DNA from: an uncultured Flavobacteriaceae bacterium
GTDB taxonomy: Bacteria; Bacteroidota; Bacteroidia; Flavobacteriales; Flavobacteriaceae
Reading direction: 5' to 3'
DNA: 64,000 bases
NCBI GenBank assembly: GCA_938073895.1
Contig: CALJFB010000002.1
Location: 1 to 64,000 of the forward strand
Position 1 is the first letter of the stretch; each line of letters starts with the position of its first letter. The translations under genes were made by a program, and so were the position numbers. Shown one piece after another: positions 1-10,689 of the stretch. Below the pieces are notes generated by a model. That model saw only the letters and a program-made list of their open reading frames with translations. It was not told the origin of the DNA and did not search any database.

Positions 1-1
1 A

Positions 2-436
2 TTAGATTATATCAATGTTGCTGAAAGACCAAATATGGATTTCAGCGATAACGGAAAGGATATTGTAATGCCAATGGTTTCGGTATCTATCCCAATTTTC
101 AATAAGAAATATAAATCCCAAACCAAACAAAATGATTTGCAGCAGCAGGAAATTACTGCTCAAAAACAGGAACGTTTAAATGCATTGGAAACGCTTTTAG
201 ACAAAGCAAATAACGAACGCATTTCTGCAAGAATAAGTTATGCTACTCAAACAAAAAACTTAAAGCAAGCTAAAGATGCAAAAGACATTTTAATCAAAAG
301 CTACGAAACAGGAACGATAGATTTTAATGATGTTTTGGATATTCAAGAGTTGCAACTAAAGTTTCAAATCAATCAAATAGAGTCTATTAAGACCTACTAT
401 GTGCAAAGTACAATCATTAATTATTTAATTCAGTAA
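2..436 (+). CDS. TolC-like outer membrane efflux protein, C-terminal part (5' end outside window)
   Basis: Open frame runs from the window edge (LDYINVAERPNMDFSDNG...); coiled-coil helices and the 'IKSYETGTIDFNDVLDIQELQLKFQINQIESIKTYY' ending are typical of TolC/CusC; sits upstream of metal efflux genes. Confidence 0.8.
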   Translation, partial: LDYINVAERPNMDFSDNGKDIVMPMVSVSIPIFNKKYKSQTKQNDLQQQEITAQKQERLNALETLLDKANNERISARISYATQTKNLKQAKDAKDILIKSYETGTIDFNDVLDIQELQLKFQINQIESIKTYYVQSTIINYLIQ

Positions 437-439
437 ACT

Positions 440-1033
440 ATGAAAAATAATAGTAAACTAATTGGCACAGGAATGTTAACTGCTATAACTGCTTCTCTAT
501 GTTGTATTACCCCTGTTTTAGCTCTTATTGCAGGAACAAGTGGAATTGCTTCAGCATTTTCTTGGATAGAACCCTTTAGACCTTATCTAATTGGGTTAAC
601 AGTTTTTGTATTAGGATTTGCTTGGTATCAAAAACTAAAACCTCAAAAAGAAATTGACTGTGAATGTGAAACGGACGAAAAACCAAAATTCATACAATCA
701 AAGAGGTTTTTAGGAATTGTTACTGTATTTGCAATTGTAATGTTGGCTTTCCCATACTATTCAGGAATTTTTTACACAAATACAGAAAAACAAATAACCG
801 TAGTTTATAAATCAGACATTAAAACAACTGAATTTAAAATCGACGGAATGACCTGCGCCAGTTGCGAAGCACACGTAAACCACGAAGTTAATAAACTCAA
901 CGGTATTGTAAACTCAAAAGCATCCTACGAAAAAGGTAACGCTATCATTGAATTTGACAAAACCAAAACCAATGAATTAGAGATTGAGAAAGCAATTAAT
1001 TCTACAGGTTATAAAGTAACTGATAAAAAATAA
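440..1033 (+). CDS. merTP: MerT-like mercuric/metal transporter fused to a C-terminal HMA (MerP-like) domain
   Basis: N-terminal TM segment with 'SLCCITPVLALIAG' plus C-terminal 'IDGMTCASCEAHV' HMA motif. Confidence 0.85.
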   Translation: MKNNSKLIGTGMLTAITASLCCITPVLALIAGTSGIASAFSWIEPFRPYLIGLTVFVLGFAWYQKLKPQKEIDCECETDEKPKFIQSKRFLGIVTVFAIVMLAFPYYSGIFYTNTEKQITVVYKSDIKTTEFKIDGMTCASCEAHVNHEVNKLNGIVNSKASYEKGNAIIEFDKTKTNELEIEKAINSTGYKVTDKK

Positions 1034-1038
1034 AATTG

Positions 1039-1245
1039 ATGCAACCTATATTAAAATCAGAAATCACTTGTCCAAACTGCGGACATAAAAAAGTGGAAGA
1101 AATGCCAACAAATGCTTGTCAATTCTTTTATGAGTGTAAAAATTGCAAAACGGTTTTGAAACCAAAGGAAGGCGATTGTTGTGTTTATTGTTCTTATGGA
1201 ACTGTCCCTTGTCCGCCAATTCAGAATAATAAAAATTGTTGTTAA
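1039..1245 (+). CDS. Small Cys-rich GDCCVxC-motif protein
   Basis: 'GDCCVYCSYGTVPCPPIQ' motif and CPNCGHKK zinc-ribbon-like N-terminus; ATG at 1039 (track ORF begins at TTG 1036). Confidence 0.85.
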   Translation: MQPILKSEITCPNCGHKKVEEMPTNACQFFYECKNCKTVLKPKEGDCCVYCSYGTVPCPPIQNNKNCC

Positions 1246-1246
1246 A

Positions 1247-3748
1247 ATGAAACATACATATCATATACACGGAATGACTTGCAACGGTTGTCGCAGTCAC
1301 GTTGAAGAAACGCTCTCTAAAGTGGAAGGTGTTTTAAAAGCAACGGTCAATTTAGAAAAGGCTGAAGCTACCATCGAAATGGAATCGCATATTCCTATAG
1401 AAAAGTTTCAAGAAGCCTTAAAAAAGGATGGTGATAGATACAGTATTCATAAACAAGGTGAACAACATCAACATTCAAATGATAAAAAGAAAGAGCAATC
1501 CAAAGGAAAAGGCACAGGCACATTTTATTGTCCTATGCATTGCGAGGGCGATAAAACTTATGATGCACCAGGCGATTGTCCTGTTTGCGGAATGGATTTG
1601 GTGGAAGAACAAAATCTATCCACAACTTCAGCAGAACAATGGACGTGTCCTATGCATCCAGAAATTGTCAAAGACGAAGCAAGTTCGTGTCCTATTTGTG
1701 GGATGGATTTAGAGCCAATGGAAGCAGATAGTTCAGCAGAGGAAAAAACGTATAAGAAGCTATTAAAGAAATTTTGGATAGCATCTGTATTCACATTACC
1801 TATTTTCTTAATTGCTATGAGCGAAATGCTTAATAACAATCCATTGTATGATATAATGGAACAGAAAAATTGGAACTGGATTCAGTTTGTTTTATCCATT
1901 CCAGTTGTCTTTTACGCTACGTGGATGTTCTTTGAGCGTGCTTATAGAAGCATAAAAACGTGGAATCTCAATATGTTTACACTCATTGGAATCGGTGCAG
2001 GTGTGGCTTGGTTATTTAGTGTATTTGGGATGTTGTTTCCAGATGTATTTCCTGAACAATTTAAAACTGAATCAGGCGCAGTTCACGTCTATTTTGAAGC
2101 AGCAACAGTTATTCTAACGTTAGTGCTTTTAGGTCAATTGTTAGAAGCTCGTGCGCATAGTAAAACCAATTCGGCAGTAAAAGAGTTACTAAAGTTAGCA
2201 CCTAATAAAGCCATAAAAATAGTAGATGGTGAAGAAATTGAAGTCAGTATTGACGAGATAGAATTAAATGATATTCTAAAAGTGAAACCAGGAGATAAAA
2301 TTCCTGTGGATGGTGTGATAACTGAAGGCGAAACAACTATTGACGAATCTATGATTACAGGAGAACCTATTCCTGTAAACAAATCTCAAGAAGATAAAGT
2401 AAGTAGCGGAACCATTAATGGGAATCAATCCTTTTTGATGAAAGCAGAAAAGGTAGGAAGTGACACGCTTTTATCACAAATCATTCATATGGTGAATGAT
2501 GCCAGTAGAAGTCGCGCACCAATTCAAAATTTAGCAGATAAAGTTTCAGGTTATTTTGTGCCAGTTGTAGTTCTTATTTCTATTATCACTTTTATTATAT
2601 GGTCAATTTGGGGACCAGAACCAGTTTATGTGTATGCGTTTGTGAATGCAATTGCAGTACTAATCATTGCGTGTCCTTGTGCTTTAGGTTTAGCAACACC
2701 AATGTCTGTAATGGTTGGTGTGGGTAAAGGTGCTCAAAATGGTGTATTGATTAAAAATGCTGAAGCTCTCGAAAAAATGGATAAAGTAACAACGCTAATT
2801 GTAGACAAGACAGGAACAATTACCGAAGGAAAGCCAACAGTTGAAACCGTTGGTGCTTTTAATGATGCTTTAAGCGAAAAAGAAGTGTTACAATACATCG
2901 TTTCATTAAATACCAATAGCGAACATCCTTTGGCAGAAGCGACAGTTAAATATGGCAAAGAACACAACGCAGAAATTTTAAAGTCCGAAGATTTTAGTGC
3001 AGTCACAGGAAAAGGTGTTGAAGCGACCATAAAAGATAAAAAAGTAGCATTAGGTAATCCTAAAATGATGGAATATGCCAAAGCAGATATTATCTCTAAA
3101 ATGAAAGACGAAGCGAAATCTTACCAAAAACAAGGTAAAACAGTTTCTTATTTGTCAATAGATAAAACCGTAGTTGGATATGTAGTTATAGGCGATAAGA
3201 TAAAAGAAACAAGTGCTAAAGCGATTAAAGCACTTCAAGATAAAGGGATAGATGTAATAATGCTAACAGGTGATAATCACGATACAGCACAAGCAGTAGC
3301 ATCAGAATTAAATCTTGCAGATTTTAAAGCCAGTATGCTACCAGAAGACAAACTCAAAGAAGTAGAGAAACTGCAAGAAAAAGGAAAAGTGGTTGCAATG
3401 GCAGGTGATGGTATTAATGATGCACCAGCATTGGCAAAAAGTGATGTAGGGATTGCAATGGGAACAGGAACAGATGTAGCGATAGAAAGTGCAATGATAA
3501 CGTTAGTAAAAGGCGATTTACACGGTATTGTAAAAGCAAAAAATTTAAGTAATGCTGTAATGAAGAACATTAAGCAAAACCTATTTTTTGCACTTATCTA
3601 CAACACTTTAGGTGTACCTATTGCAGCAGGTGTGTTGTTTCCATTCTTCGGAATACTACTCTCGCCAATGATAGCTGCTTTAGCAATGAGTTTTAGCTCT
3701 GTTTCTGTTATTGGAAACGCATTACGATTAAGAAATATTAAAATATAA
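1247..3748 (+). CDS. copA: Heavy-metal translocating P1B-type ATPase with N-terminal HMA and two heavy-metal-binding (CPMHP...CPICGMDL) domains
   Basis: HMA 'GMTCNGC', CPC motif 'IACPCALGLATP', DKTGT, 'GDGINDAPAL'; ATG at 1247 follows the stop of the preceding gene (track ORF starts upstream at 1181). Confidence 0.93.
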   Translation: MKHTYHIHGMTCNGCRSHVEETLSKVEGVLKATVNLEKAEATIEMESHIPIEKFQEALKKDGDRYSIHKQGEQHQHSNDKKKEQSKGKGTGTFYCPMHCEGDKTYDAPGDCPVCGMDLVEEQNLSTTSAEQWTCPMHPEIVKDEASSCPICGMDLEPMEADSSAEEKTYKKLLKKFWIASVFTLPIFLIAMSEMLNNNPLYDIMEQKNWNWIQFVLSIPVVFYATWMFFERAYRSIKTWNLNMFTLIGIGAGVAWLFSVFGMLFPDVFPEQFKTESGAVHVYFEAATVILTLVLLGQLLEARAHSKTNSAVKELLKLAPNKAIKIVDGEEIEVSIDEIELNDILKVKPGDKIPVDGVITEGETTIDESMITGEPIPVNKSQEDKVSSGTINGNQSFLMKAEKVGSDTLLSQIIHMVNDASRSRAPIQNLADKVSGYFVPVVVLISIITFIIWSIWGPEPVYVYAFVNAIAVLIIACPCALGLATPMSVMVGVGKGAQNGVLIKNAEALEKMDKVTTLIVDKTGTITEGKPTVETVGAFNDALSEKEVLQYIVSLNTNSEHPLAEATVKYGKEHNAEILKSEDFSAVTGKGVEATIKDKKVALGNPKMMEYAKADIISKMKDEAKSYQKQGKTVSYLSIDKTVVGYVVIGDKIKETSAKAIKALQDKGIDVIMLTGDNHDTAQAVASELNLADFKASMLPEDKLKEVEKLQEKGKVVAMAGDGINDAPALAKSDVGIAMGTGTDVAIESAMITLVKGDLHGIVKAKNLSNAVMKNIKQNLFFALIYNTLGVPIAAGVLFPFFGILLSPMIAALAMSFSSVSVIGNALRLRNIKI

Positions 3749-3752
3749 CACT

Positions 3753-5525
3753 ATGAAAAAATATATAATTTACTTCGGAATATTGGTAGTTGGTTTGTTT
3801 TTAGGTTGGTTGCTTTTTGGTGGTTCATCAAAAAAAGATACAGAACATAATCACGATGTCATTTCAGAAACCAATCAAATGTGGACGTGTTCTATGCATC
3901 CACAAATTATGCAACCAGAATCAGGCGATTGTCCTATTTGTGGTATGGATTTAATTCCTGCTGAAAGTGTAAGTGATGGCCTGTTAGCAGATCAATTTAA
4001 GCTTACAGAAAATGCTATGGCATTAGCCAATATTCAAACATCTATTGTTGGTAAAGGCAATGTTGAAGGCAATACTATCAAATTATCTGGTAAGATTGCT
4101 GAAAACGAAGAAGCCAATGCAGTACAGGTAAGTTATTTCGCTGGAAGAATTGAACGTTTGAATGTGAGTTTTACAGGTGAAGAAGTTCGTAAAGGTCAAT
4201 TATTGGCAACCATTTATTCACCAGAACTCTATGCAGCACAACAAGAATTAATTACAGCAGCATCTTTAAAAGAATCACAACCTGCCTTATACAAAGCAGT
4301 CCGTAATAAACTGAAATTATGGAAGCTCTCTGAAAATCAAATCAATCAGATTGAAGAAACAGGAAAAGTGAAAGAAAACTTTCCTGTGTATGCAACCGTT
4401 TCGGGTACTGTTACAGAAAAATTGGTAGAGCAAGGCGATTACATTAAACAAGGACAACCCTTACTTAAAATTGCTAATCTAAACACGGTTTGGGGTAACT
4501 TTGATGTGTATGAAAATCAGATTGACCGCTTTAAAAAAGGACAAGAAGTGTTGATTACAACGAATGCCTATCCTAATAAAGAATTTAAAGGTAAAGTCGA
4601 TTTTATTGACCCAGTTTTAAATACAAAAACAAGAACTGTCACCTTGCGTGTAGTCTTAAATAATAAGGATGATGTGTTTAAGCCAGGAATGTTTGTAACA
4701 GCAAATATAGATGGGGTTACAAGTAACAATGACCAAGTACTAACGATTCCTGCATCTGCTGTTTTGTGGACAGGTGAACGTTCTGTGGTTTATCTTAAAA
4801 CAAATCCAGACCAACCTATTTTTGAAATGCGTGAAATTAAGTTAGGCAATCAAATTGGTAATGACTATGAAGTTTTAGAAGGCTTGTTTGTCGGAAATGA
4901 AATTGTGACCAATGGAACATTTACGGTTGATGCCGCAGCACAATTACAAGGTAAAAAGTCAATGATGAATAAGGAAGGTGGAAAAGTAATGACAGGTCAC
5001 GAAAGTCATTTAGATATGGAAGAAACCACATCTATCACTAATGAAAACAATTCCAATATTAATGATCGCATTAGCGTTTCAAAGGATTTTCAAAATCAAT
5101 TAAAAGTAATTTTTGATGATTATATCAAATTGAAAGACGCTTTAGTTAAAGATAATTCAAAGAATGTAGTAAAAGAATCAAAAATTCTATTAGATAATTT
5201 GACTAAAGTTGATATGAAACAACTAACAGATAAAGTAGCTCATAACCATTGGATGTCATTAGAAAAAGAAATAAAAGCATCTGGCACTTCAATTTCAAAA
5301 ACATCTAATATCAAAGTGCAAAGAAACCATTTCAAACATTTATCTGCACATTTAATAAAAGCGGTACAACAGTTTGGTGTCAATGAAAAAGTCTATGTAG
5401 AATTTTGTCCAATGGCTGATAACAATAATGGTGCGTATTGGTTGAGTAAAGAAGAAAAAGTAATCAATCCCTACTTTGGCGAAGCAATGCTAACCTGTGG
5501 TGAAGTAAAACAAGTAATAGAATAA
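3753..5525 (+). CDS. cusB: Efflux RND periplasmic adaptor (CusB-like) with N-terminal heavy-metal-binding domain and C-terminal DUF3347-like domain
   Basis: 'WTCSMHPQIMQPESGDCPICGMDLIP', MFP core 'GTVTEKLVEQGDYIKQGQPLLKIANL', C-terminal 'VYVEFCPMADNNNGAYWLSKEEKVINPYFGEAMLTCGEV'. Confidence 0.9.
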   Translation: MKKYIIYFGILVVGLFLGWLLFGGSSKKDTEHNHDVISETNQMWTCSMHPQIMQPESGDCPICGMDLIPAESVSDGLLADQFKLTENAMALANIQTSIVGKGNVEGNTIKLSGKIAENEEANAVQVSYFAGRIERLNVSFTGEEVRKGQLLATIYSPELYAAQQELITAASLKESQPALYKAVRNKLKLWKLSENQINQIEETGKVKENFPVYATVSGTVTEKLVEQGDYIKQGQPLLKIANLNTVWGNFDVYENQIDRFKKGQEVLITTNAYPNKEFKGKVDFIDPVLNTKTRTVTLRVVLNNKDDVFKPGMFVTANIDGVTSNNDQVLTIPASAVLWTGERSVVYLKTNPDQPIFEMREIKLGNQIGNDYEVLEGLFVGNEIVTNGTFTVDAAAQLQGKKSMMNKEGGKVMTGHESHLDMEETTSITNENNSNINDRISVSKDFQNQLKVIFDDYIKLKDALVKDNSKNVVKESKILLDNLTKVDMKQLTDKVAHNHWMSLEKEIKASGTSISKTSNIKVQRNHFKHLSAHLIKAVQQFGVNEKVYVEFCPMADNNNGAYWLSKEEKVINPYFGEAMLTCGEVKQVIE

Positions 5526-5558
5526 TAAATCAAGTAGTAACAATTAAATTTTAAAACA

Positions 5559-6038
5559 ATGAATTTTTCAAAGAAAAATCACGAACACAAAAACAAAAAT
5601 GTAATCGACGTGAGTAAAAAAGTAATTTTAAGTGTAGCTGTTATAGCAACTTTAGGTGTAACAAGCTGCAATAGCCAAACCAAAAAAGAAACTAAAACAA
5701 CAAAAACTGAAACGTCTAAAGATATGGCAATGACAGACCTGTCTTTTGGTGTAAGAGGAAATTGCGGAATGTGTAAAAACACTATCGAAAAAGCAGCTAA
5801 CGGTGTTGAAGGTGTTGCAAGTGCCAATTGGGATGTCGATAAAAAGAAGATTGATGTGTCTTTTGATGATACAAAAACCGATGCAATGGCAATTCATAAA
5901 GCAATTGCAGCTTCAGGTTACGACACTGAAAAAGTCGCAGGAAGTGAAGATGCTTACAAAAACCTGCCAGGTTGTTGTCAATACGACCACGAAATGAAAA
6001 TAGATCAGTCAGGTAAAATGAAATCTGACAACCATTAA
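5559..6038 (+). CDS. HMA-domain (heavy-metal-associated) lipoprotein/periplasmic protein
   Basis: Signal-like N-terminus with 'TSCNSQ' lipobox; HMA-like fold with 'RGNCGMCKNTIEKAANGVEGV'. Confidence 0.8.
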   Translation: MNFSKKNHEHKNKNVIDVSKKVILSVAVIATLGVTSCNSQTKKETKTTKTETSKDMAMTDLSFGVRGNCGMCKNTIEKAANGVEGVASANWDVDKKKIDVSFDDTKTDAMAIHKAIAASGYDTEKVAGSEDAYKNLPGCCQYDHEMKIDQSGKMKSDNH

Positions 6039-6077: not shown

Positions 6078-6110
6078 TTAAATAAAATTTGGTAATAATA
6101 TCAGCATCTG

Positions 6111-6770
6111 TGAACAGGTAATATGGTGTTCGTCAGGCATTCCATTTTGTTACCTAAAACATTTCTGCAAGCCAAATACAATCTAATAAGTCATTTCGAG
6201 CGGAGCCGAGAAATCACATATCAGTTAGTTGTTGTCTAATATATAACGGCTTGCATAAAACACCCAAAACACCACTGTGGTGACACATCCACGTTGGCGT
6301 TTTGGGTTTGCTTTAGTCCACACAATACATGCCTTCCTCACCCTTAGCTACTCTTGCACCCAAACCCAATATAGTTTGCACTAGCGTGCAGACAGTTTAC
6401 ATTGGGTGCAACCGCTACTTAATGCTTTGCGAGCCTGCTGGGTCGCATCGGGCTATAAGGGCGTCACAGTTTTTGACCCAGCCAATTTGCCGTATAAAAT
6501 CACCTTAGCAGGATGATTACATCCGGCAACGCACCGTAAGAGCTAAACCTTTATTCAGATTTCCCTATCGGTACACCTCATAAAGTATAGCCCTTACCTT
6601 TCCCACTGGTTCAAAAACTCCGCCACCCGCGTGTAACACGTAGCTGTGGCAGCCTACTACTAAAATGATATACTAATAATATAGTTTGGATTCAAAACGT
6701 ATCAGGCTATATTGCCACAACACCCTCGCTCATCTCGCAGGCGGCTCGCGCCTTTTTGATTACCTGTTCA
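6111..6770. other. ORF-free hairpin-rich segment bounded by a perfect 12-bp inverted repeat (TGAACAGGTAAT...ATTACCTGTTCA); putative non-autonomous mobile element or structured RNA
   Basis: Inverted repeat at 6111-6122 and 6759-6770; internal stems 6263-6270/6299-6306, 6355-6363/6402-6410, 6437-6444/6475-6482, 6624-6628/6648-6652; visibly more GC-rich than flanks; no ORF on either strand in the track. Confidence 0.5.
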
Positions 6771-6797
6771 AAAGAATCATTAGAATGCTTTCAGACA

Positions 6798-7174: not shown

Positions 7175-7360
7175 TTAGTTGAAATACTGTTTCACTAGCC
7201 AACGAAGTAACATGGAGACTATAAAACTTACAACAGCGCCGATGGCAGCCATGATGATGGTATAGACTATAGCATTCCAACTTAAGTTTAAGAAAGCAGA
7301 AAAAAGCGTGCCGCCTAAAACGCCTGCTTTAGTATTTGGATCTATGATGATAATTGACAT
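7175..7360 (-). CDS. Small hydrophobic membrane protein (61 aa), holin-like size and topology
   Basis: Hydrophobic segment 'IVYTIIMAAIGAVVSFIVSMLLRWLVK'; 10-bp gap from the preceding gene of the same operon. Confidence 0.6.
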   Translation of the reverse strand: MSIIIIDPNTKAGVLGGTLFSAFLNLSWNAIVYTIIMAAIGAVVSFIVSMLLRWLVKQYFN

Positions 7361-7370
7361 AGATCAAGTC

Positions 7371-7583
7371 TTAGGGTGATTCGTCTGAAACTACAGCCTG
7401 ACTTACTGCTGTGGCGACAGTTCCAGCAACGGTCATATAGGTTGCAATACTAACGACTATAGCCGGCATACTGATTGGTGCGGCGATAATGGCACCTCCA
7501 GCAGTGGCTAGGGCGATACCGATATTTCGTAAGATTTTAAAAAACTTCGGAGTTGGTTTGTTATACCGTTCTACTAAATTCAT
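7371..7583 (-). CDS. Small membrane protein (70 aa)
   Basis: 'GIALATAGGAIIAAPISMPAIVVSIATYMTVAGTVATAVSQ' hydrophobic stretch; start overlaps the end of the DUF5675 gene. Confidence 0.65.
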   Translation of the reverse strand: MNLVERYNKPTPKFFKILRNIGIALATAGGAIIAAPISMPAIVVSIATYMTVAGTVATAVSQAVVSDESP

Positions 7584-7983
7584 AATGTTGTGTTGTTATG
7601 GTTAAAAAAATCTGTTCTTTACAGTCAATAGCTTGTTGCACTACTGACGTTAACTTCTGCATCGCAATTCTCGATTGTAAGCCTTTTCCTAAACCACCTA
7701 AATAGGTGACTGGAGCAATACAACCTTGTAGGTCTTTCAGTGCATCATTTGCGGGATGCAATAAAATGAGATGCCGATGAGGCACATCTTTAACTAAAAG
7801 ATGATGTTTGAAATGCGTCGAATACCGAGGAACGAGTTCATAGCGACCTTCTGGTATGCAGGAGGTATTTCGCTTGTTCTGTTTCCAGGGCAACTCTATC
7901 GTGTGACATAAAAAATTTGCAGAACAGAAGAGGGTACCGTTGGTACCGCCTTCAAAATAGGTTCTGTAAAGTGTCAATTCCAT
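7561..7983 (-). CDS. DUF5675 family protein
   Basis: Pattern 'CHTIELPWKQNKRNTSCIPEGRYELVPR...RHLILLHPANDALKDLQGCIAP' matches DUF5675 as I know it. Confidence 0.8.
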   Translation of the reverse strand: MELTLYRTYFEGGTNGTLFCSANFLCHTIELPWKQNKRNTSCIPEGRYELVPRYSTHFKHHLLVKDVPHRHLILLHPANDALKDLQGCIAPVTYLGGLGKGLQSRIAMQKLTSVVQQAIDCKEQIFLTITTQHYEFSRTV

Positions 7984-7985
7984 GA

Positions 7986-8741
7986 TTACGGAGTATCAAT
8001 TCCAACAATTGCTAAAGCGTTGTAATTTCCGTTTTTAAGGGAGTACATTTGCCCATTTACCTCTTGAAAGAATTCAATACCAATAACTTGAAAAATTGGT
8101 AGTGTAGAGTTCGCTGTTAAATTAGCCGTCAATGACAACGGCGCAACAGTGCTACTATCCCAAGGTAAAACTGAAGATACTTCACTATCAAAAACATACG
8201 TTTCTGCAGAAAAATCAACCTCAACACCACCGTTAGAAATCATGAAGTGCGTAGTTCCACTTGGCGCTACAATATCATTCACAGCAATAAACTCTGCGAT
8301 ATCCGCAACTACAGTTCCTGCAACACGATCAATTGTTCCGGCGTAAGCCGCAAACAATAAACCACCCAATTTTCCGTTTTTGTTGAACTCAAAATTTTCC
8401 AGTAATGATAAATCACCATCAGGAATAGTTCGTAATCCACGATCATTGGTAGTGTCTGCTTTAATAACAGTCAATACATTTTTAGTCAATCTGCTTGTGA
8501 CTCTATTGTCAGACGCTTTTTGCAACAGTGTACGTAAGGCCACTCGCAACAATTTACCACCTTTTCCTGCACGCCCAAATTCTGAACCGTTTTCACGAGT
8601 TCTTTGAAATGCAGGGTCATTTGCAATTCTAGAAGCTTCAACACCTCCTTTACCACGAGCCAAGTGCCCATCTTGCGATTTGTAAAAAGAAATATCTCCG
8701 ATAGTTCCTTTCAACTTAATAATTCCAATTTGCTTTGCCAT
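7986..8741 (-). CDS. Hypothetical protein (251 aa), apparently a Flavobacteriia-type conserved family
   Basis: ORF opening the cassette; N-terminal 'KGTIGDISFYKSQDGHLARGKGG....NDPAFQRTRENGSEFGRAGKGGKLLR', C-terminal beta-rich part. Confidence 0.7.
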   Translation of the reverse strand: MAKQIGIIKLKGTIGDISFYKSQDGHLARGKGGVEASRIANDPAFQRTRENGSEFGRAGKGGKLLRVALRTLLQKASDNRVTSRLTKNVLTVIKADTTNDRGLRTIPDGDLSLLENFEFNKNGKLGGLLFAAYAGTIDRVAGTVVADIAEFIAVNDIVAPSGTTHFMISNGGVEVDFSAETYVFDSEVSSVLPWDSSTVAPLSLTANLTANSTLPIFQVIGIEFFQEVNGQMYSLKNGNYNALAIVGIDTP

Positions 8742-8869: not shown

Positions 8870-8902
8870 GTATAGATAAAGTATAGATAGTGTATGAATA
8901 AA
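8870..8902. repeat. Three tandem 11-bp direct repeats overlapping the start of the 68-aa ORF
   Basis: GTATAGATAAA / GTATAGATAGT / GTATGAATAAA. Confidence 0.65.
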
Positions 8903-9100
8903 GTTAAAAGACATTGTATTTACCCAAAAGATATTATGTTTCTTACAGGAAGAAGTGAACGTTATGGACGTATGCTTTTAAAGAAAATTAAAAAGTACTT
9001 TGGGAAAGAGCAACATCAATTTATCACTCCAGATGAATTTGCAGAATATAGTGGCATTAAAGAAGAGGTAATTGATAAGTATCTTGAAAAAACGTCATAA
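8894..9100 (+). CDS. Small putative DNA-binding (HTH/excisionase-like) protein, 68 aa
   Basis: Basic N-terminus and helical pattern 'IYPKDIMFLTGRSERYGRMLLKKIKKYF...ITPDEFAEYSGIKEEVIDKYL'. Confidence 0.55.
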   Translation: MNKVKRHCIYPKDIMFLTGRSERYGRMLLKKIKKYFGKEQHQFITPDEFAEYSGIKEEVIDKYLEKTS

Positions 9101-9258
9101 ATTTTGAGTTAAATTATGTTGTATTAGATAATTAAATTGTTAACTTTATACAAGACTTAAAACAAATTAAACTATCAAACCACAAACAACTAGTCTACAT
9201 ATCGGTTAACAAAAAAATAAGTTATCGCAAAGTATTGATTTATATAGTGGCAAGACAA

Positions 9259-9283
9259 GGGGTTCGAATCCTGCCACCCCGAC
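9259..9283 (+). pseudogene. 3' tRNA fragment (T-loop plus 3' acceptor strand), probably tRNA-Pro; att-like remnant
   Basis: GGGGTTCGAATCCTGCCACCCCGAC: TTCGAAT T-loop, CCTGC T-stem 3' strand, CACCCCG acceptor 3' strand; no matching CGGGGTG 5' half within ~75 nt upstream. Confidence 0.75.
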
Positions 9284-9316
9284 AAAAAGCTTCAACATTT
9301 ATGTTGAAGCTTTTTT
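9284..9316 (+). terminator. Intrinsic terminator directly following the tRNA fragment
   Basis: AAAAAGCTTCAACAT-TTATG-TTGAAGCTTTTTT. Confidence 0.8.
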
Positions 9317-9708: not shown

Positions 9709-10689
9709 ATGTCAGATACAATCGAAAAAGTAAAGTGCCTAATTATAGGTTCTGGTCCTGCTGGTTATACAGCAGCAATATATGCAGCAAGAGCTAATAT
9801 GAGTCCTGTTTTATATCAAGGAACTCAGCCAGGTGGACAATTAACAACTACAAACGAAGTAGAGAATTTCCCAGGTTATCCTGATGGTGTTACTGGTCCA
9901 GAAATGATGATACAGTTAGAAAATCAAGCAAAACGTTTTGATACAGACGTAAGAAATGGTTGGATTACTAAAGTTGATTTTTCTGGAGATATTCATAAAG
10001 TTTGGGTAAATGAAGAGAAAGAAATTCATGCAGACACTATTATTATTTCTACAGGAGCAAGTGCAAAATATTTAGGTTTAGAGTCTGAACAAAAATATTT
10101 AAAGCTTGGTGGCGGAGTTTCTGCCTGTGCAGTTTGCGATGGGTTTTTCTACAGAAATCAAGAAGTCGTTATTGTTGGAGCAGGAGATAGTGCTTGTGAA
10201 GAAGCACACTATTTATCTAAGTTATGTAAAAAAGTAACTATGTTAGTTCGTAAGGACGAGTTTAGAGCCTCAAAAATTATGGCTACTCGTGTTAAAAACA
10301 CAGAAAATATAGATATTTTATTTAATACAGAAACCGACGAAGTTTTAGGAGATGGACAAGTTGTAACAGGTGTTAGAGTTAAAAATAACCAAACTCAAGA
10401 TACGCACGAAATTCCAGTAACTGGATTTTTTGTAGCAATTGGACACAAGCCTAATACAGATATTTTTAAAGGTTTTATTAATTTAGATGAAACAGGTTAT
10501 ATAAAATATGAGCAACCTGGAACCTCTAAAACAAATGTGCCTGGTGTTTTTGTAAGTGGAGACGCAGCAGATCATGTTTATAGACAAGCTATTACAGCTG
10601 CAGGAACTGGTTGTATGGCAGCATTAGACGCAGAACGTTATCTAGCAGCTAAAGATGCTACTTTTGAGGTGTCTACACCAACTTACTAA
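9709..10689 (+). CDS. trxB: Thioredoxin-disulfide reductase
   Basis: GSGPAGYTAAIYAAR, redox motif 'CAVCDG', 'GDAADHVYRQAITAAGTGCMAALDAERYL'. Confidence 0.97.
   Translation: MSDTIEKVKCLIIGSGPAGYTAAIYAARANMSPVLYQGTQPGGQLTTTNEVENFPGYPDGVTGPEMMIQLENQAKRFDTDVRNGWITKVDFSGDIHKVWVNEEKEIHADTIIISTGASAKYLGLESEQKYLKLGGGVSACAVCDGFFYRNQEVVIVGAGDSACEEAHYLSKLCKKVTMLVRKDEFRASKIMATRVKNTENIDILFNTETDEVLGDGQVVTGVRVKNNQTQDTHEIPVTGFFVAIGHKPNTDIFKGFINLDETGYIKYEQPGTSKTNVPGVFVSGDAADHVYRQAITAAGTGCMAALDAERYLAAKDATFEVSTPTY

What the first reader, a model, noticed from the sequence alone, without database searches (positions are those of the whole stretch)
9247..9316. tRNA 3' fragment with intact terminator: probable right attachment site of a genomic island
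Seen: GGGGTTCGAATCCTGCCACCCCGAC is the T-loop plus 3' acceptor of a tRNA (CACCCCG would pair with CGGGGTG, a tRNA-Pro-like acceptor), but no 5' tRNA half lies upstream. A clean terminator (AAAAAGCTTCAACAT...) follows directly. GTGGCA (9247-9252) and TGCCAC (9272-9277) also form an inverted repeat around it. Established: tyrosine-recombinase elements integrate in tRNA 3' ends and leave a 3' fragment at the distal end. Inference: the element lies to the left (metal operon, structured DNA, unknown cassette) and chromosome resumes at about 9320 with trxB.
Basis: partly seen in the sequence, partly recalled or inferred. Interest (0 to 1): 0.72.

Follow-up and report, generated by a model that had tools for sequence, protein, structure and literature searches.

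The report
Right end of a tRNA-Pro genomic island
The scrap of tRNA gene is the right-hand scar of a mobile DNA island that inserted into a proline-tRNA gene next to trxB, and it belongs to a widespread, apparently undescribed family of islands in Flavobacteriaceae that all carry the same small set of unknown genes at this end.

Summary
Window 9261-9284 is identical over 24 nt to the 3' end of tRNA-Pro(TGG), has no 5' half, and is followed by a clean terminator. In relatives without the element, an intact tRNA-Pro(TGG) plus terminator stands upstream of trxB. In G016, Meridianimaribacter flavus (G030) and another relative (L057) the same scar lies there, preceded by the same genes as in the window. 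Two complete relatives at the same tRNA (G030, 16.7 kb; G182, 22.1 kb) show the full plan: intact tRNA-Pro, tyrosine integrase, cargo, right-end module, tRNA scar. The window's own left end is not assembled: the window starts at base 1 of its contig, and the udk gene that should flank the intact tRNA sits at the very start of contig C52, about 19 nt short of the expected tRNA. The genes beside the scar (68-aa helical protein, 251-aa protein with no family, DUF5675, small membrane proteins) form a conserved module. In 55 of 75 loci a tRNA 3' end of 13 nt or more lies beyond the 68-aa gene (control 0 of 690), from Pro, Ser, Arg, Tyr or Asp tRNAs. The module's function is unknown. The island also carries a conserved ~650-nt structured RNA candidate.

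The parts
9261..9284 (+). attR core: 3' end of tRNA-Pro(TGG) left by integration
   Evidence: 24/24 identity to own intact tRNA-Pro on C61; intact tRNA at this place in empty relatives
9284..9316 (+). tRNA transcription terminator, chromosomal side of attR
   Evidence: same-genus G001 has a near-identical hairpin after its intact tRNA-Pro, AAAAAGCTTCAGCATATCGCTGGAGCTTTTTT
9247..9277 (.). inverted repeat GTGGCA...TGCCAC, putative integrase core-binding half-sites
   Evidence: sequence; GTGGC kept at the same spacing in most tRNA-Pro elements; weak statistical support across all targets
9198..9211 (+). putative integrase arm-type site CATATCGGTTAACA
   Evidence: motif present in this interval in 32 of 56 relatives, nearly always 60-72 nt before the core (random stretches 77 of 1120), and repeated in attL beside the integrase in G030 and G182
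8894..9100 (+). 68-aa four-helix protein beside attR; candidate excisionase or repressor
   Evidence: found in 77 of 80 related loci; AlphaFold pLDDT 91; sub-threshold PHROG 575 Cox-like match, E 0.056
7986..8741 (-). 251-aa protein, hallmark of the right-end module, no known family
   Evidence: no Pfam, PHROG, NCBIfam or PADLOC match; in 91 of 399 Flavobacteriaceae genomes
7561..7983 (-). DUF5675 protein, module member
   Evidence: PF18925 E 5e-32; same gene cluster in 75 of 82 analysed loci
7371..7583 (-). 70-aa small membrane-like protein, module member
   Evidence: same gene cluster in 66 of 82 analysed loci
7175..7360 (-). 61-aa small membrane-like protein, module member
   Evidence: read directly from the sequence; resembles the 66-aa family
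6105..6785 (-). conserved ~650-nt structured noncoding RNA candidate inside the element
1..6038 (+). metal-resistance cargo (outer-membrane efflux protein end, MerT/HMA, P-type ATPase, CusB-type fusion protein, HMA protein), cut by the contig start
   Evidence: similar metal genes in the cargo of related elements, in L091 in the same order next to the RNA
9709..10689 (+). trxB, first chromosomal gene right of the element

Best explanation
The fragment is attR, the distal attachment site of a genomic island that a tyrosine integrase inserted into the 3' end of a tRNA-Pro(TGG) gene between udk and trxB. Integration splits the tRNA gene. The element carries a copy of the tRNA 3' end that rebuilds an intact tRNA at its left end, beside the integrase, and the displaced original 3' end with its terminator stays at the right end, in front of trxB. 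The integrase would bind core half-sites (GTGGCA/TGCCAC) and arm sites (ATATCGGTTAACA). The 68-aa protein encoded beside attR is the likely directionality factor or repressor. Shown: scar, empty and occupied sites in relatives, complete relatives with intact tRNA and integrase, shared arm motif, conserved right-end module. Inferred: the integrase of this very copy, the roles of the arm and core motifs, the role of the 68-aa protein, and present-day mobility.
For: Identity to the tRNA-Pro 3' end, no 5' half. Empty sites with intact tRNA-Pro and terminator upstream of trxB. Occupied sites with the same genes and scar in G016 and G030. Complete elements of 16,681 and 22,072 bp with intact tRNA-Pro and a 414/419-aa integrase carrying Arm-DNA-bind_5, Phage_int_SAM_5 and Phage_integrase domains. 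A tRNA 3' suffix of 13 nt or more beyond the 68-aa gene in 55/75 loci against 0/690 controls. Arm motif in both ends. G+C 0.34-0.38 inside, 0.30 outside. Own udk contig stops about 19 nt before the expected tRNA.
Against: No intact tRNA linked to this locus, no integrase of the arm-binding type and no RteC were found in the own draft genome. The assembly is 92.7% complete in 65 contigs, so the left end may be unassembled or lost; a decayed island cannot be excluded.
Confidence: 0.94

Rival explanations
1. The fragment marks an old, degraded insertion: the element has lost its integrase and only the right end with cargo remains.
For: No matching integrase or RteC in the draft genome. The 251-aa protein of the window sits on a long branch.
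Against: The core, arm motif and module genes are intact and open. The missing part coincides with two contig ends, which an unassembled tRNA repeat explains.
Confidence: 0.2
2. The fragment is a tRNA pseudogene from a local duplication, or a chance T-arm-like sequence, unrelated to mobile DNA.
For: Short fragments can arise by decay (general knowledge).
Against: The same kind of scar recurs with the same neighbouring genes at different tRNA genes, and the intact tRNA is there in empty relatives.
Confidence: 0.01
3. The element is a prophage or phage satellite, and the right-end module (DUF5675, small membrane proteins, 251-aa protein) is a lysis or particle module.
For: DUF5675 matches PHROG 1501, a phage family of unknown function; small membrane proteins stand beside it; complete relatives carry a small AAA ATPase resembling helicase loaders.
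Against: The 251-aa protein has no match in 50,697 phage records or IMG/VR, no significant viral fold match, and no capsid or terminase gene was recognised among the proteins scanned.
Confidence: 0.15

Closest known systems
tRNA-targeted genomic islands of the Islander type (PMC4383910)
   Same: Tyrosine integrase beside a regenerated tRNA; displaced 3' fragment marks the other end.
   Different: This family has a conserved gene module at the fragment end, shared by elements that use different tRNA genes.
Riemerella anatipestifer 10K genomic island (PMC6764341)
   Same: Flavobacterial island at a tRNA-Arg with an IntN1-like tyrosine integrase; excision and integration shown by experiment.
   Different: The paper describes a 53-bp repeat downstream of the tRNA and gives its genes as mostly hypothetical proteins. 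I did not test whether it carries the right-end module.
Riemerella anatipestifer 50K genomic island (PMC9745183)
   Same: Flanked by 19-bp repeats TCCCTCTCTCTCCGCAAAA downstream of a tRNA, similar to the Ser-tRNA scars seen here.
   Different: Prophage-like (RAP44); no such module is described in the passages I read.
CTnDOT-type conjugative transposons
   Same: RteC gene and an arm-binding tyrosine integrase in the complete relatives.
   Different: No conjugation genes were recognised in the two complete relatives; small size (17-22 kb).

Membership tests
tRNA-targeted genomic island | Displaced tRNA 3' fragment at one end | tested here: met
tRNA-targeted genomic island | Intact tRNA regenerated at the other end | tested here: inconclusive
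   Met in G030 and G182; in the own genome the assembly breaks there
tRNA-targeted genomic island | Tyrosine integrase next to the intact tRNA | tested here: inconclusive
   Met in G030 and G182; none linked to this locus in the own draft
tRNA-targeted genomic island | Unoccupied site in relatives | tested here: met
   G006, G025, G009, G010, and G001 with extra genes before trxB
tRNA-targeted genomic island | Foreign composition and variable cargo | tested here: met
   G+C and cargo differences
Integrative conjugative element (CTnDOT type) | Relaxase and conjugation genes | tested here: inconclusive
   None recognised in the ORFs read in two complete relatives; only part of them scanned with Pfam
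Prophage | Structural and packaging genes, relatives in phage collections | tested here: not met
Phage satellite | Induction and packaging by a helper phage | not testable with these tools
   needs experiment

The most novel reading that the evidence does not exclude
The window shows one member of an undescribed class of Flavobacteriaceae islands. The class is defined by a conserved module at the attR end (68-aa helical protein, 251-aa protein, DUF5675, two small membrane proteins), often with a ~650-nt structured RNA nearby. The module is kept while cargo, integrase and tRNA target change, so it probably performs a transfer or excision function of a kind not yet known.
Probability: 0.4. Interest if true: 0.75.

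Novelty: new variant of a known kind. Interest (0 to 1): 0.5.

Why it matters
The integration mechanism is textbook. The family is not: the 251-aa hallmark gene occurs in about 23% of the Flavobacteriaceae genomes sampled and matched no curated family, and in most inspected copies it sits beside a tRNA scar. It gives a simple genomic tag for finding the right ends of islands that spread metal-resistance, restriction-modification and Wadjet-like genes in these bacteria, and it makes a concrete question testable: what does a module kept at the attachment site through several tRNA-target switches do?

Tried and rejected
Intact tRNA and integrase in the own genome: only the C61 Ser-Pro-Arg array copy, which is followed by tRNA-Arg and not an island, and three other integrases without link to this locus. 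RteC in own genome: none. Phage origin: no phage or IMG/VR relatives of the 251-aa protein; one plasmid relative. Fold search of the 251-aa model (pLDDT 73): only generic beta-sandwich matches. Fold search of the 68-aa model: nothing significant. Homology of the 251-aa protein to DUF6266: not supported. Pairing between left half-site and target tRNA over all elements: weak, 16/44 against 269/1394 for mismatched targets. Rfam on the noncoding region: nothing convincing. Literature: no paper found that describes the module; subscription journals are mostly not covered.

Full report
Observation. Bases 9261-9284 (GGTTCGAATCCTGCCACCCCGACA) equal the 3' end of the tRNA-Pro(TGG) gene on contig C61 of the same genome plus the bases just after it. 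There is no tRNA 5' half; ARAGORN finds nothing at the site. A strong hairpin with a T-run follows at once (9284-9316, z -6.6). The inverted repeat GTGGCA/TGCCAC is at the stated places.

The site in relatives. I took the region upstream of trxB from relatives. In G006, G025, G009 and G010 an intact tRNA-Pro(TGG), followed directly by a terminator, stands upstream of trxB; in G006, G025 and same-genus G001 udk lies on the other side of the tRNA. In G001 the intact tRNA lies beside udk, 7.4 kb upstream of trxB, and its terminator (AAAAAGCTTCAGCATATCGCTGGAGC...) is clearly homologous to the one at 9284 in the window (AAAAAGCTTCAACATTTATGTTGAAGC...). This ties the fragment to that tRNA gene. In G016, on a short contig, the region upstream of trxB holds a related but shorter scar, ATCCTGCCACCCCGAC plus terminator, preceded by the same 68-aa gene and the start of the same 251-aa gene as in the window. 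L057 shows the same.

Complete elements. Meridianimaribacter flavus CGMCC 1.10957 (G030, L078/L092) has a complete element of 16,681 bp at this place: intact tRNA-Pro; 414-aa integrase with Arm-DNA-bind_5, Phage_int_SAM_5 and Phage_integrase domains; RibD_C-domain and UvrA-like ABC proteins; RteC; an HTH_17 protein; a small AAA ATPase; a four-gene cluster with an MksE match and a weak JetD match (Wadjet-like); two small membrane proteins; DUF5675; the 251-aa protein; the 68-aa protein; the tRNA scar; terminator; lipoprotein; trxB. G182, a single-contig genome, has a 22,072-bp element with the same order of core genes and other cargo, including aldo/keto-reductase-like genes and an Eco57I-type methyltransferase. 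Both lie beside the PQQ-type sugar dehydrogenase gene that also neighbours the empty site in G006 and G025.

The own left end. The window is C2:1-64000, so nothing lies to its left in this assembly. The own udk gene is at C52:115-717, at the start of that contig. C52 begins 17 nt before the conserved AAGAGGTGC motif, which in G001 lies 36 nt from the tRNA; the contig therefore stops about 19 nt short of the expected tRNA. A tRNA-Pro sequence present twice in the genome is a natural place for a short-read assembly to break. No integrase linked to this locus and no RteC was found in the draft, so the integrase of this copy is not shown.

The family. The 251-aa gene next to the scar is in 91 of 399 Flavobacteriaceae genomes, up to six copies in one, and a scan of GTDB genomes gave at least 531 encoding loci. 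Of the 80 best, 77 have the 68-aa gene beside it. Looking 700 bp beyond that gene, 55 of 75 loci hold an exact tRNA 3' suffix of 13 nt or more, against 0 of 690 control stretches; targets are Pro-TGG, Ser-TGA, Ser-GGA, Arg-ACG, Arg-TCG, Arg-TCT, Tyr-GTA and Asp-GTC. The rest may use tRNAs missing from my 44-sequence list. Over the 80 loci plus the two complete elements, DUF5675 is in the same gene cluster for 75, the 77-aa family for 66 and the 66-aa family for 54. On a tree of the 251-aa protein the tRNA target changes 13 times, against 29.2 for shuffled labels and a minimum of 7: the module is inherited with the target, but the target has switched several times.

Arms. The motif (A/T)TCGGTT(C/A)AC and close variants lie 60-72 nt before the core in nearly all elements that have it (32 of 56 have it in the interval; random 77 of 1120), and it is repeated beside the integrase in both complete elements, in G182 twice direct and once inverted. 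The window has it at 9198-9211. Arm-type binding is inferred from the position and from the integrase's arm domain.

Cargo. G+C is 0.34-0.38 left of the scar and 0.30 to its right. Related metal genes occur in other elements of the family, in L091 in the same order relative to the RNA.

Role of the module. It is conserved and at the attachment end, but its work is unknown. The 68-aa protein folds confidently into four helices without a clear relative; the only hint is a sub-threshold Cox-like excisionase match. The 251-aa protein has a beta-sandwich C-terminal half and a poorly predicted N-terminal part. I suggest excisionase or repressor for the first (moderate), and transfer or surface functions for the rest (weak).

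Structured RNA. Bases 6105-6785 are noncoding and conserved in about 20 other related loci. The alignment folds far better than column shuffles (z -14.0 on the minus strand, -10.9 on the plus strand; covariation term 11.0 against a shuffled mean near 0), and 37 of 89 pairs predicted on the plus strand show compensatory changes. Rfam has no convincing match. It is in 35 of 399 genomes; many places lie 1.5-7 kb downstream of a 251-aa gene (compare), others beside DUF6266, DUF6943 or HTH_17 genes.

Verdict. The event is a known kind; the family with its fixed right-end module looks undescribed as far as I could search, which is why I call it a new variant and not more.

Noticed in passing
window 6105-6785 (minus strand likely): A ~650-nt conserved structured noncoding RNA candidate with a closing stem CAGGTAAT/ATTACCTG, strong covariation and no convincing Rfam match, found in 35 of 399 Flavobacteriaceae genomes, often in such islands.
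   Followed up: partly
L130:8449-9102: DUF6266 gene next to the same RNA and an HTH_17 gene, just outside the 251-aa element; DUF6266 may be the counterpart of the 251-aa gene in a second class of such islands.
   Followed up: partly
L078:4669-10839: Four-gene cluster with MksE and weak JetD matches, Wadjet-like, carried as cargo and missed by PADLOC.
   Followed up: no
L149 and L161 (same contig JAUXPH010000034.1, Lutibacter MAG); L159 (Lutibacter MAG): Two right-end modules close together on one contig, suggesting tandem insertion of such islands.
   Followed up: no
G000:C15:47-1177: A 376-aa tyrosine recombinase with an unusual N-terminus at a contig end, not linked to this island.
   Followed up: no
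NZ_CP129969.1 (Marivirga sp. BKB1-2, 25-kb plasmid): The only plasmid hit of the 251-aa protein, 46% identical over its full length.
   Followed up: no
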